The position numbers were made by a program, and so were the translations under genes. From Moraxella catarrhalis (lineage in GTDB: Bacteria > Pseudomonadota > Gammaproteobacteria > Pseudomonadales > Moraxellaceae), in NCBI RefSeq assembly GCF_001656295.1, contig NZ_LXHE01000003.1, positions 1 through 55,136 of the forward strand: a stretch of 55,136 nucleotides of DNA. The letters are read 5' to 3'. Positions 46,859 through 55,136 of the stretch are shown here, one piece after another. The notes below the pieces were generated by a model. That model worked only from the letters and a program-made list of their open reading frames with translations. It had not been told where the DNA came from and made no database searches. Positions within the stretch are counted from its first letter, which is position 1, and the number at the start of each line of letters is the position of its first letter.

Positions 46859-47206
46859 TTATTGGTAGTTTGTGCCAGCTTTGTCTTGAGATATTTTTAC
46901 AGCCGCTTGGGTAAAACCATTAATACTACCTGATACAGCACCAGTACCCATTGCTGCTCTCACAGAATTTGTGGAGAAGTTAGACATGATTTTTTTTTGC
47001 CCCTGTTACGGTAATATTTGCCCCCCCCTAGCAACTACACCAACACCTGTACCCATTACTGCACCTTCAACAACAGCTCCTGCAAATCCTGCTTTATCCA
47101 TTTGGTTGCCTGCTAAGGTATTGGATACGACATAATAAGTAGCACCAGCAACAGCTCCTGCTCCACCACTTACCATACCAATCTCACTTAAAGATAATTC
47201 GCGCAT
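46859..47206 (-). CDS. double-glycine-leader bacteriocin precursor, frame broken at two homopolymers
   Basis: ATG 47206 follows AAAGGAAG at good spacing. The leader MRELSLSEIGMVSGG is 15 residues and closely matches the colicin V leader type (MR-L-L-E-VSGG), cut after GG by a peptidase-containing ABC exporter. The core is Gly/Ala-rich (GAGAVAGATYYVVSNTLAG, FAGAVVEGAVMGTGVGVVA). As written, the frame ends after the G8 tract (47021-47028) at 47006, 66 residues. With one G more and one A fewer in the A9 tract (46990-46998), it continues GANITVTGAKKIMSNF to a Gly-rich tail ending DKAGTNYQ at 46859, about 115 residues. So it is either phase-variable, decayed or misread. No exporter genes are in the window. 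Confidence 0.72.
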
Positions 47207-47267
47207 CAATCTTCCTTTTCTTGAATTAAAGGAAAAATTATACGAGAGAAATTTAAGGCAGTCAAGC

Positions 47268-50950: not shown

Positions 50951-51235
50951 TTAGGCAGCAAAAGCACTTTGCATCCGCTTGGCTAATTGGACATCACGGC
51001 TTTGAACGGCATGTTGGTCAGCTGTACCGATGCGTACCAAAATGCTGGTGTGATTATTTTCCCAAATGGGGTAGTGTTCTAGTATTTCGGCATAAAATGC
51101 CACACGCACCATAAAGCTTATGGCATCAGCAAAGCTTTCAAAATGATAAGTTTTAACCAGGCTATGACCATCAAGCGACCATCCTGGTAAGCTATCAAGT
51201 TGAAGGGCGACCTGATCGGCGGTAAGGCTACTCAT
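50951..51235 (-). CDS. pterin-4a-carbinolamine dehydratase family protein, degenerate active site
   Basis: 94 residues, PCD/DCoH fold: LTADQVALQLDSLPGWSLDG at the start, then KTYHFESFADAISFMVRVAFYAE, EHYPIWENNHTSILVRIGT and SRDVQLAKRM. The enzyme recycles the 4a-hydroxytetrahydrobiopterin made by phenylalanine hydroxylase (PhhB). Here the usual HHP is HYP, and the T-H-D of the second motif is T-A-D, so two of the three catalytic His are missing. The G-G-L-T turn is also changed. It may be non-catalytic or act as a binding partner. The ATG at 51235 has TTGGAG upstream; an in-frame ATG at 51277 lacks one. Confidence 0.82.
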   Translation of the reverse strand: MSSLTADQVALQLDSLPGWSLDGHSLVKTYHFESFADAISFMVRVAFYAEILEHYPIWENNHTSILVRIGTADQHAVQSRDVQLAKRMQSAFAA

Positions 51236-51277
51236 ATGAACTCCAAAATAAGCAAGATTATGGCACAAGTTTAGCAT

Positions 51278-51743: not shown

Positions 51744-53790
51744 ATGAACCAAGTTCCCCCCCAATAATTTAGCAAATATCAATAAAAAACCCAGTATTTT
51801 TTTGCGTTTTTGGTATTGGCTGACTTTAAAAGTGTACTATGATAAGCTTTTAACCAAAGGGGCAGCGAGTTATTTGACCATTATCTCAGTTCTTGTTTTT
51901 ATGGCTGCATTTGCTGAGGGTTTTGCATGGGGGCATTTGGGGAGCACTTTTACTCATGATAATCCATGGCTGGGTAGAATTGGTTTGGGCTGCTTTGTTG
52001 GCTTTGCGTTGCTATTTTTTGATCGGCAAATGATTACAGCCGATTTTTTAGAAGATAAACATAAAAGACAGTTATTACCACATCTTCACAATATTGAAAA
52101 GACTCAAGCGTCTTCTGGTTTTGTGGGTAAAGTGCAGGGTTTTTGGTATCATTTAAGAAGCCTTAAAATTTATTTATTCTTGGTGTGCCGTTTTGCCATC
52201 ATTCTTGGCTCTTTGTATGTTACCGCACCATTTTTAACACAAATTTTATTTAAAACCGACATTGAACAAAAACAGTTTGAGCAATACGAACAGAGTATTG
52301 AGTCTACTAAAAATGAGATCATCGGTAAAATTGATGATGAAATTCGTGCCAAAAAAGAGAAAATTAATAGCCTGCGTGTCAAATTGGATACCGAAATTAG
52401 TGGTGGGCGTGGTACGGGTCGAGGCAAAGGTCCTATTGCCCAAAATTTGGAAAATGAAATCCTTGAGCATAAAGCAGAATTAGAGACACTCATCAAAGAT
52501 CGTAATGACAAAGAAAAGAAAATCGAGGATGTTATCATTGGGTATAATGACAAGACATTAGATGAAGGTGCATTAACAGCACTTGGGATTAAGGTTGCCA
52601 AAGACAGTCCATTATTTCGTGAGCGAGCCATTGAGCAGTTAGAAAAAGACTCCGCCTATCAAAAAGTTAAACAAGCAGTGGATTTTTTCTTACTGGGTTT
52701 GGGTTTAATTTTGATTTTAGGTAAGTTTTTTCAGACCAAATCTGTACAGCTTTATTTTTCAGAAATTCTACAAGAAAAATGGCTAAAATACGAGCGAGGG
52801 GTTTTTGATGAATATTTAAATCCTACCGAGCGAAGCAGTAGCCTTTTACCTACCACAACAGCATTCCCTGCTGAATTTGAAGCCATGATGGTCAGGTATA
52901 ACAACAATATTTCTGAATACGAATCTCAAGAAAAACAAAAACGAGATCAGGAAAAATCTGACCACATTGCTCAGCAAGCTTATTTTTTGGGGCGTGCCAA
53001 AGAATATAAAGACTCAAATACAGAGTTTCATAACCGTGCGTATAATCAAGAAGTAACAGAATTGGCATTGGCAGAAATAGATGCACAAGAGCAGGCTTAT
53101 TTGGCAAAGTATGGTAAAAATTATTATAAATGGAGTCATGAAAAACAGGCGTTAAGTGATGAGTTACAAGCCATCGATAAAGAATACAAAAGCAAGCAAA
53201 ATGGTCGTCATGAATATGAAGAAGAACGGCTTGCTAAGCTTGAACAAGTTCAAAAGGATTTGGATATTTTAAGGGTTAAGGTTGCAGGATCAGAGCGTGA
53301 TTATACGCTCGAGGGAACAAAAACCTATGAGCATATCCAAAAGTCTATTGCTTATCATAAGCAGCAAATCAAAGCGTTGGAAGATGCTCATTTGGAGTAT
53401 GATGAAAATTTGGTTAAATTGGCAAAACAGATGACCTATTTGACCCAAGAGATTGAGGAGCTGAACCTTAAACTTGAACCTTATTATGATAAGCTGGCAG
53501 AGTTTGAGCAGTATCGTGAGGGAATTTATCAAAAACGCCTTGATTATATGTCTGATCATATCAAACACAACCCTTATGATGATTATAATACAGAAGAGGA
53601 TTTGGCGTATTATGCAAAGCATCTACAACAAGAAGCCAAAAATAGCAAAAGTGGTTTACTGGGTGCACGCACCCGCTGGCAGCGAGTACCGAGCGACCCT
53701 CAAGTAAAAACACCGTCTCATCAGGCACAAACGCCATCTCATGAATCACAAGATAGTGATAAGATACCCACAATTAAGCACTCGGATTAA
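51744..53790 (+). CDS. large membrane/coiled-coil protein (DUF4407-like), start frame separated by a C7 tract
   Basis: ATG 51744, behind GGAGATGAT, reads MNQVPP and stops at 51765. If the C7 run (51756-51762) had six C, the frame would continue NNLANINKKPSIFLRFW into an open frame of 662 codons that otherwise has only a TTG start at 51802. The full protein would be about 681 residues. TM segments (numbered from 51802): about 23-42, 50-68 and 121-144. A Glu/Lys coiled coil follows (150-250), then a fourth TM (293-310) and long coiled coils from about 370 to 600, with a polar tail. Three TMs, coiled coil and one TM is the DUF4407 layout. A MotA/ExbB-type channel gene follows after 8 bp, so the two probably work together in the inner membrane. 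Family by architecture only. Confidence 0.75.
51756..51762 (+). promoter_or_regulatory. C7 homopolymer, putative phase-variation switch
   Basis: Seven C residues at codons 5-6 after ATG 51744. C6 (or C9) restores the full-length frame, C7 gives a short abortive peptide. Intragenic polyC or polyG tracts are a known way of slipped-strand phase variation in Moraxella and Neisseria. Confidence 0.6.
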
Positions 53791-53798
53791 GGTGAATT

Positions 53799-54116
53799 AT
53801 GTCTACTTTTGCACTTTTGTTTGATGCCATCACGGCACCCATTAATATGGCATTTTTATTGGTCATGTTAGTGTTATTTATCATAGGGTGGGTTGCTGTC
53901 GGTCGTGATGATGGTCATAAACCTAGGCATTTTATCGACAGTATTCCCACATTGCTGACATCCATCGGCATTTTGGGAACTTTTTTTGGTATTGTATTGG
54001 CTTTACTTGCCTTTGATGATAGTGATATCAAATCTCATATCAATGACATCATCTCAGGCATGAAAACCGCCTTTATTACGAGCGTGACGGGGTTATTAAG
54101 TAATCCGCCAAATTAA
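53799..54116 (+). CDS. MotA/TolQ/ExbB-type proton-channel protein, truncated by IS630
   Basis: The native part encodes about 100 residues before IS sequence begins near 54101; the last codons (SNPPN) and the TAA at 54114 come from the IS. TM1 is about residues 13-34 (MAFLLVMLVLFIIGWVAVG). SIPTLLTSIGILGTFFGIVLALLAFD is the conserved TM of the MotA/TolQ/ExbB family, followed by IISGMKTAFITSVTGL. These stators use proton flow to drive a partner across the envelope; ZorA of the Zorya defence system is of this family. Ribosome site AAGGTGA is close behind the upstream stop, so the pair is an operon. The C-terminal part and any MotB/OmpA-like partner lie beyond the IS, outside the window. Likely non-functional now. 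Confidence 0.82.
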   Translation: MSTFALLFDAITAPINMAFLLVMLVLFIIGWVAVGRDDGHKPRHFIDSIPTLLTSIGILGTFFGIVLALLAFDDSDIKSHINDIISGMKTAFITSVTGLLSNPPN

Positions 54117-54158
54117 TGTTATGATATTATCAACTACCCATCATAACATTAAACACAA

Positions 54159-54584
54159 ATGAAAATCAGCACCATTGAACTAACAGACACTCAAAAACAA
54201 GCACTTGAGCAAGGCTACAAACTAGGCGAAACAGCAGTCTATCGACAACGATGTCATCTCATTCTACTCAAAAGCCAAGGCTACAAAGCTAAAGATATAG
54301 CAAACATACTAGACACCAACATCCAAAGTGTCTATAACTGGATCAAACGCTACCGAGAGCATGGCATACAAGGACTACAAACCAAACTAGGACAAGGCAG
54401 AAAAGCCATACTCACCCATGAGCATGAACAAATCGTCAAAGACTGTATTAGCCGAGAACACCAACGAGTTAAACTCATTATGAATGAACTCACTGAGCAA
54501 ACAGGTAAACAATTTAGCCAACGCACCCTTGAGCATTTTTTAAAAGTCTTGGCTACACCTACAAACGCATCCGAATGCGACTAA
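54159..54584 (+). CDS. IS630-family transposase, orfA (N-terminal DNA-binding half)
   Basis: 141 residues in the zero frame. Helix-turn-helix of the IS630 type: YRQRCHLILLKSQGYKAKDI, then ANILDTNIQSVYNWIKRY and GIQGLQTKLGQGRKAILT, followed by a second winged-helix part (FSQRTLEHFLKVL). It binds the IS ends. The zero frame terminates at 54584 shortly after the heptamer at 54536-54542; a -1 shift there continues smoothly into the catalytic half. Confidence 0.92.
   Translation: MKISTIELTDTQKQALEQGYKLGETAVYRQRCHLILLKSQGYKAKDIANILDTNIQSVYNWIKRYREHGIQGLQTKLGQGRKAILTHEHEQIVKDCISREHQRVKLIMNELTEQTGKQFSQRTLEHFLKVLATPTNASECD
54536..54542 (+). promoter_or_regulatory. -1 ribosomal frameshift heptamer T TTT TTA
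   Basis: In the orfA frame the codons are CAT TTT TTA AAA. The heptamer T_TTT_TTA fits X_XXY_YYZ. After a -1 slip, translation reads AAA AGT CTT GGC TAC, giving KSLGYTYKRIR, the expected continuation of an IS630 transposase. Confidence 0.75.
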
Positions 54585-55136
54585 AAGGGCAATGTCACCT
54601 AAAACTATACCAACTTAAAAAACAGCAACTTGCCATACTTGAGAACTTAAGCCAAAACAACCACATCGACCTATACTACGGCGATGAAACCAAAATCAGT
54701 CAAACAGGCTATGTACCCTATGGTTGGCAACACAAGGATGAAAACATCAGCATTTCTGTGCAACGGGGTAAAGATATTAACTGTTTTGGTCTACTCTCAA
54801 GAACCATGCAGTTTCATTACCAACTAAGCGAAACGAATATGACGGCTAATGATATACTTACCTTTATTGATGAGATATCATTAAAAATTAACAAATACAC
54901 GGTACTTGTATTAGATAATGCCAGAGTCCATACTGCCAAAGTGATTCAAAAGCGGTTAAAGATTTGGCAACAGCGTGGTTTGTTTATCTTTTATTTACCG
55001 CCTTACAGTCCACAGCTTAATATTATTGAGCGTTTATGGAAAGAGGTAAAACAAGGCTGGCTTAGACCGTGTGATTATGTCGATTTCGATTCACTGCGTT
55101 ACGGTGTAAATCGTGTTTTTGCTAATATCGGTTCAA
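54542..55136 (+). CDS. IS630-family transposase, orfB (catalytic half, partial)
   Basis: The -1 frame runs open from the heptamer to the end of the window, about 198 codons. The DDE catalytic residues are visible: Asp in IDLYYGDETKISQ, Asp in VLVLDNARVHTAK, Glu in PYSPQLNIIERLWKEVK. It reaches RPCDYVDFDSL near the C-terminus, so only a few residues are missing. It has no start of its own with a good ribosome site at the left edge, which supports synthesis as an orfA-orfB fusion. Confidence 0.9.

What the first reader, a model, noticed from the sequence alone, without database searches (positions are those of the whole stretch)
51744..54116. Candidate new two-gene membrane system: DUF4407-like coiled-coil protein with a MotA/ExbB-type proton channel
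Seen: a protein of about 680 residues with four TM segments and long coiled coils, followed 8 bp later by a MotA/TolQ/ExbB-family gene (SIPTLLTSIGILGTFFGI). Known: channel proteins of this family energise MotB/TonB/TolA-like partners, and ZorAB of Zorya defence uses a MotA-like stator with a long tail. Inference: here the long tail may be supplied by a separate protein, forming a motor-coupled envelope sensor or defence system. The location after parC/phhB, at an IS-rich chromosome edge, and the switching tract suit an accessory or defence locus. I know no description of this pair.
Basis: partly seen in the sequence, partly recalled or inferred. Interest (0 to 1): 0.8.

Follow-up and report, generated by a model that had tools for sequence, protein, structure and literature searches.

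The report
Zorya defence operon with extra gene
The pair is the start of a known anti-phage system (type II Zorya), broken here by a jumping gene and led by an unusual extra membrane gene whose relatives in two other genomes also sit among defence genes, so it may be a further, possibly switchable, defence part.

Summary
The two genes are real but not a new two-gene system. The MotA/ExbB-like gene is the first ~100 codons of zorA of a type II Zorya anti-phage operon, cut by an IS630-type element. The rest of zorA, then zorB and zorE, lies on another contig; a shared contig-end overlap and gene order in relatives place the two side by side. ZorA keeps its own long tail, so the tail-supplier idea fails.

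New is the gene in front: a ~4-TM coiled-coil DUF4407 protein, 8 bp before zorA. It is rare (7 of 299 Moraxellaceae) and next to zorA only here (1 of 7; 1 of 4 Moraxella zorA loci). Two of the other six copies also sit in defence settings: alone at the smc|tauE site that holds Zorya II in two species and type IIG R-M in two others, and in a tRNA-Gly integrase island with type III R-M. The other four sit behind secreted-protein genes.

Long G/C tracts lie just upstream of zorA in two species and of the lone DUF4407 gene, two of them in the promoter spacer, suggesting phase variation.

Best reading: a defence-associated membrane module docked onto Zorya II; function unproven.

The parts
51744..53790 (+). 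DUF4407 gene (ATG 51744, its frame closed just behind the C tract as assembled; long open frame 51748-53790): inner-membrane protein with ~4 hydrophobic segments, a ~145-aa loop between the third and fourth and a ~350-aa C-terminal part
   Evidence: PF14362, 39.6 bits; hydropathy; AF2 helices, low confidence
51756..51762 (.). run of seven C just behind the start codon; candidate slippage tract
53799..54098 (+). 5' part of zorA (type II Zorya); the rest lies on contig C26 (G000:C26:166410-167510, -) followed by zorB and zorE
54099..55136 (+). IS630-type element (HTH ORF 54159-54584 and DDE ORF 54575-55135), TA at its edge, runs off the contig; interrupts zorA
   Evidence: the DDE_3 match was made on the identical ORF of the C26 copy; edges set by eye
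50951..51277 (-). phhB, left edge of the insertion; in five relatives it is followed directly by the GNAT gene that lies beyond zorE here

Best explanation
The locus is a type II Zorya anti-phage operon (zorA-zorB-zorE) with one extra first gene, DUF4407, gained between phhB and a GNAT gene, and it is broken in this genome: an IS630-type element splits zorA, and the start frame of the DUF4407 gene is closed at a C tract. Shown: gene identity, order, the split, the empty site in five relatives, and the other DUF4407 settings. From published work: ZorAB is a peptidoglycan-binding, ion-driven motor and ZorE a nickase (passages of PMC11890865). Inferred by me: the DUF4407 protein is a defence-associated module that can stand alone or be docked onto Zorya II. 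Its loop between the third and fourth TM segments would lie in the periplasm and report envelope disturbance at the injection site, and its long cytoplasmic coil would pass this on, in this operon to the ZorA rod or ZorE. In several Moraxella species such cargo appears to be switched on and off by G/C-tract slippage upstream of the first gene.
For: Zorya II: the 5' zorA piece hits PDLC00636 at 2.8e-50 (profile 2-96), the C26 piece at 3.1e-215 (95-461), zorB PDLC00641 at 3.8e-93 and zorE PDLC00642 at 2.6e-102. Contiguity: the contig ends overlap by 1040 bp at 100%, the two zorA pieces together cover the profile from 2 to 461, and phhB and the GNAT gene stand side by side in five relatives (G006, G008, G002, G018, G004). 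Operon: 8-bp gap, and no promoter-like site on the + strand between 52221 and zorA. DUF4407 as defence cargo: in G011 it lies alone between smc and tauE. Of the 8 other occupied smc|tauE sites, 2 hold Zorya II, 2 type IIG R-M, 2 an IetA-like AAA gene (one scanned, one by look-alike) and 2 secreted-protein arrays (by eye). In G925 it lies in a tRNA-Gly/integrase island with type III res and mod. Switching: G10 in the zorA promoter spacer of G007 and G11 in that of DUF4407 in G011, same site and same layout; C16 upstream of zorA in G010. The module TTGACA-N6-10-G8+-N0-5-TAANAT, a pattern written after seeing those two, occurs 3 times in 22 genomes.
Against: DUF4407 is next to zorA only once. In 4 of 7 genomes (G001, G018, G716, G720) it sits behind secreted-protein genes (Adhesin_E by Pfam in the one set scanned), with no zor gene near in the three with ample flank. 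The window copy is the most diverged of the four aligned (32-35% identity to the other three, which share 50-69%), so inference from them is indirect. It has no PADLOC match (G925 copy). The AF2 model is poor (pLDDT 61.9, pTM 0.31) and no fold search ran. The topology is hydropathy only. G005 zorA has an interrupted tract (GGGGTGGG), so switching is not universal, and the window tract is only C7. Tract-length change within a species could not be seen. The promoter scan found no site for G011 (its spacer of 19 is outside the scan's range) or G010.
Confidence: 0.5

Rival explanations
1. The DUF4407 gene is an ordinary envelope gene that landed in front of zorA by chance; the rest is plain type II Zorya.
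For: Pairing seen once; in 4 of 7 Moraxellaceae genomes DUF4407 follows secreted or adhesin-like genes; none of the 20 other zorA loci of the order that I fetched has it. Of 3 papers that hold the word DUF4407 none is on defence by title or opening of the abstract.
Against: 8-bp operon spacing; lone copy exactly at the smc|tauE site used by Zorya II and R-M, behind the same promoter layout; copy in an integrase island with type III R-M.
Confidence: 0.27
2. DUF4407 is an obligate fourth subunit that defines a Zorya II subtype (DUF4407-A-B-E); lone copies are remnants.
For: Operon layout here; the lone G011 copy sits where Zorya II sits in G005 and G007.
Against: zorABE stands without DUF4407 in G005, G007 and G010, and zorA without it in the 20 other fetched loci. 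G011, G925, G001, G716 and G720 keep a full-length open DUF4407 frame without zor genes in the flanks searched.
Confidence: 0.15
3. One reading: a new two-gene motor system whose long tail is the DUF4407 protein.
For: Gene order only.
Against: zorA encodes its own 370-aa tail and is followed by zorB and zorE.
Confidence: 0.02

Closest known systems
Zorya type II (zorA2-zorB-zorE)
   Same: All three proteins match the PADLOC type II models, in order A-B-E
   Different: An extra DUF4407 gene leads the operon; zorA is IS-split; C tract at the start of the extra gene
Zorya type III (ZorA, ZorB, ZorF/DUF3348, ZorG/DUF2894)
   Same: Zorya core with other added genes (passages of PMC8565338 and PMC11890865)
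   Different: DUF4407 gene has no PADLOC hit and only DUF4407 in Pfam; ZorE is present
Pfam DUF4407 (PF14362), function unknown
   Same: Domain over the cut-off
   Different: The protein runs ~340 residues beyond the matched domain, and 3 of 7 Moraxellaceae copies lie in defence settings
Phase-variable R-M systems of Moraxella and other mucosal bacteria
   Same: Repeat-tract switching of a defence locus (passages of PMC7302503 and PMC12707154); type IIG R-M with G11-G13 tracts at the same smc|tauE site
   Different: Here the tract is upstream of Zorya or DUF4407 genes, in two cases in the promoter spacer

Membership tests
Zorya type II | ZorA: MotA/ExbB-type stator gene | tested here: met
   PF01618 E 6.6e-7; PDLC00636 2.8e-50 and 3.1e-215 for the two pieces
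Zorya type II | ZorA with long cytoplasmic C-terminal tail | tested here: met
   370-aa 3' part, profile positions 95-461, no TM segment by hydropathy
Zorya type II | ZorB: one TM with Asp, OmpA-like peptidoglycan-binding domain | tested here: met
   PDLC00641 3.8e-93; PF00691 2.7e-7; TM 31-49, Asp just ahead of it by eye, not aligned
Zorya type II | ZorE HNH nuclease | tested here: met
   PDLC00642 2.6e-102; Pfam HNH_3 only 22.9 bits, below its cut-off of 24.8
Zorya type II | all genes intact in this genome | tested here: not met
   zorA split by an IS630-type element
Zorya type II | anti-phage activity | not testable with these tools
   needs a phage assay
Zorya type III | ZorF (DUF3348) or ZorG (DUF2894) gene | tested here: not met
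   DUF4407 gene has no PADLOC hit and no Pfam hit but DUF4407; zorE present
Pfam DUF4407 | profile match over curated cut-off | tested here: met
   39.6 against 31.3 bits
Phase-variable locus (relatives G007 zorA, G011 DUF4407) | long homopolymer between -35 and -10 | tested here: met
   G10 and G11; G005 has an interrupted tract at the same place
Phase-variable locus (window) | long homopolymer early in the frame | tested here: inconclusive
   only seven C; one of three such runs in 55 kb
Phase-variable locus | tract length varies between isolates and changes expression | not testable with these tools
   one genome per species held

The most novel reading that the evidence does not exclude
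Moraxellaceae DUF4407 proteins are an undescribed membrane-borne anti-phage module that works alone and can also be docked onto type II Zorya, and Moraxella flips Zorya II and this module on and off by G-tract slippage in a shared promoter design: a phase-variable Zorya.
Probability: 0.33. Interest if true: 0.75.

Novelty: new variant of a known kind. Interest (0 to 1): 0.5.

Why it matters
If DUF4407 is a defence part, a domain of unknown function gets a role, and Zorya gains an add-on that may report the state of the envelope to its motor. Apart from DUF4407, G/C tracts before zorA suggest that a motor-type defence whose nuclease can harm the host is kept switchable, which would help explain how costly immunity is carried. 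Both claims can be tested with one phage panel and a reporter.

Tried and rejected
DUF4407 as tail supplier: rejected, zorA has its own tail. Conserved DUF4407-zorA pair: of 43 of 390 genomes of the order with a ZorA match at E 1e-20 (own included), I fetched stretches of 20 of the 42 others; none has a relative of the Moraxella DUF4407 in the fetched stretch (22 not looked at; L051 reaches only ~0.6 kb upstream). DUF4407 on plasmids, phages or viral contigs: no relative. The genome-contig scan with the single protein found nothing; the scan with an alignment gave 4 Moraxella loci. DUF4407 in Gammaproteobacteria at large: only the own genome of 274 at E 1e-8. Among 57 relatives 13 had a DUF4407 match at E 0.001, but only 5 over the curated cut-off (G000, G001, G011, G018, G046); I dropped the 8 below it. 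Of these G041 was listed and looked like a mobile-element region by eye; G046 is over the cut-off, and its neighbours told nothing by eye. Structure: AF2 model too weak; three tries at a fold search met a busy machine. Solved structures: one weak hit, E 0.035 (a coiled-coil stretch, recalled), disregarded. Papers: DUF4407 with Zorya, 0. Zorya with phase-variable or with phase variation: 4 and 4 listings, six different papers; passages seen in five, none about switching of Zorya; one (PMC13286925) not opened. Zorya with Moraxella: 4 listings, one opened. Searches gave nothing on switching of Zorya in their listings; of their papers I opened two, passages only. The Nature Zorya paper (PMC11946911) is not held, so 'undescribed' is limited to these searches.

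Full report
WHAT IS THERE. The window is one whole contig, C15, of a 26-contig genome of 2.23 Mb. It is a Moraxella: G011, of the same genus, has a contig of the same length as the named Moraxella MAG contig JAUMYZ010000002.1. At its right end an open frame (51748-53790) carries DUF4407 (39.6 bits, cut-off 31.3). Eight bases later, at 53799, begins a MotA_ExbB gene. That gene is cut: an IS with HTH and DDE_3 ORFs starts at about 54099, next to a TA, and runs to the contig end. Gene names such as phhB, parC, smc, tauE and ettA are recalled from sequence, not from a call.

WHERE THE REST IS. The own genome has one further match to the same ZorA2 model, at C26:166410-167510, profile 95-461, while the window piece covers 2-96. 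On C26 the gene is followed by a 238-aa and a 283-aa gene, which match ZorB2 (3.8e-93) and ZorE2 (2.6e-102). C15 and C26 share a 1040-bp overlap at 100% at their ends. Because an IS is repeated DNA, I sought a second line. In five of eight genomes fetched around phhB (G006, G008, G002, G018, G004) phhB and the GNAT gene stand side by side, in G006 and G004 with ettA next or close by. Here phhB ends C15 while the GNAT gene and ettA follow on C26 in the fitting orientation. So the operon DUF4407-zorA-zorB-zorE, with a PepSY-type gene and small ORFs beyond it, sits at a site that is empty in those five. G001, G013 and G011 have other arrangements there.

TYPE. This is type II Zorya by gene content. 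Published work (passages of PMC11890865) describes ZorA5B2 as an ion-driven motor with a cytoplasmic rod, ZorB as peptidoglycan-binding and ZorE as a nickase. Here zorA is split, so the system is presumably dead in this genome.

THE EXTRA GENE. Pfam finds only DUF4407 and PADLOC finds nothing. Hydropathy gives hydrophobic stretches near residues 16-43, 55-73, 118-142 and 289-313, with the same pattern in G011 and G925. The short N-terminal end is positively charged (3 K/R to 1 D/E), the loop after the second stretch nearly balanced (6 to 5); I infer N-in, a ~145-aa periplasmic helical loop and a ~350-aa cytoplasmic helical part, which is weakly supported. AF2 shows helices throughout but is weak overall. 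The window copy is the most diverged: 32-35% identical to the three others aligned, which share 50-69%.

HOW OFTEN PAIRED. ZorE2 is found in 5 of 22 Moraxella genomes at E 1e-10. Four of them (G000, G005, G007, G010) show zorA; G017 shows a zorE piece near a contig end. Only G000 has DUF4407 in front. In 390 genomes of the order, 43 have a ZorA match at E 1e-20. I fetched 20 of the 42 others; none has the DUF4407 relative in the fetched stretch. A four-sequence DUF4407 profile finds 7 of 299 Moraxellaceae genomes at E 1e-8.

WHERE THE SEVEN SIT. (a) Window: Zorya II. (b) G011: alone between smc and tauE. (c) G925, another genus: behind two tRNA-Gly genes, an integrase and phage-like replication genes, with type III res (PDLC03647) and mod (PDLC03634) in the same stretch. 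(d) G001, G018, G716, G720: behind secreted-protein genes. G716 and G720 have contigs of the same lengths as the M. boevrei (L073) and M. macacae (L074) records, and G018 as M. caprae. Only the L073 set and one L074 gene were run through Pfam, L073 giving Adhesin_E, LprI and DUF3761; the others look alike by eye. The G018 copy is in pieces.

THE smc|tauE SITE. smc was found in 21 of 22 genomes. I looked upstream of it in 20 (G014 at a contig edge was not fetched; G019 has no match). In 16 the tauE gene follows in the same orientation within 7 kb. Seven have gaps under 1.2 kb (G009, G012, G013, G015, G016, G017, G021). Nine carry cargo: Zorya II (G005, G007), type IIG R-M (G010, G018), an IetA-like AAA gene with small genes (G001, G002; only G001 was scanned, G002 by look-alike), secreted-protein arrays (G003, G020; by eye, not scanned) and DUF4407 (G011). 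G000 and G004 have tauE turned round, and G006 and G008 have none in the stretch fetched. So 6 of the 8 other occupied sites hold known or candidate defence genes.

TRACTS. Before zorA in G007: TTGACA, an 18-base spacer ending in ten G, then TAAAAT, 11 of 12 consensus matches. Before the lone DUF4407 in G011: TTGACA, 19 bases ending in eleven G, then TAAGAT (outside the scan's spacer range). G005 has the same promoter with an interrupted tract, spacer 16. In G010 a run of sixteen C begins 57 bases before the zorA start; no promoter was found there by the scan. G/C runs of 10 or more are few: 5 distinct in G007, at most 4 in G011, at most 36 in G010 (from overlapping hits; the list was cut before G011 and G010), so a run within 150 bp of a given start has odds of about 3e-4, 3e-4 and 3e-3. 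These are after-the-fact odds. The promoter-with-tract pattern, written after seeing two cases, occurs 3 times in 22 genomes, none in the reversed control; the third precedes a solute-binding-type gene (by eye) in G017. Of the 20 non-Moraxella zorA loci, three have any G/C run of 8 or more, none within 1.5 kb upstream of zorA as far as fetched.

READING. I hold the Zorya II identity as near certain (about 0.97). That DUF4407 is a defence-linked module or subunit rather than a chance neighbour I put at about 0.65, the mechanism far lower. The main finding for a specialist is the combination: a Zorya II add-on candidate and signs of phase-variable Zorya. No paper in the searches made describes either (passages of five papers), but the library lacks many journals.

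Noticed in passing
L121:10382-11833 (+), G925: 484-aa gene directly behind DUF4407, with an N-terminal TM, a weak glycine-zipper match and, by eye, a PD-(D/E)xK-like motif: a possible membrane-bound nuclease partner. The island's DnaC-like gene looks partly duplicated on both sides of this cargo.
   Followed up: partly
smc|tauE site, L072, L081, L082, L105, L108, L109, L110: A recurrent Moraxella insertion site carrying different defence systems, several with G tracts.
   Followed up: yes
L109:4490-7347 (-), G001; look-alike in G002 (L110): IetA-like AAA gene followed by four small genes (one DUF805) with no PADLOC match: maybe an undescribed defence set.
   Followed up: partly
L105:3443, L105:3578 (G010), L108:3454 (G018): G11-G13 tracts at the boundary of a type IIG R-M gene and a specificity-like ORF, suggesting switching of target recognition.
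   Followed up: no
window 47006-47209 (-): Small ORF with a double-glycine-type leader (LSLSEIGMVSGG), bacteriocin-like by eye, with a C8 run at 47021 inside it.
   Followed up: no
L123, G017:C42:43098-43126 (-): Third copy of the TTGACA-G-tract-TAAAAT module, upstream of a solute-binding-type gene beside a groEL-like gene (both by eye).
   Followed up: no
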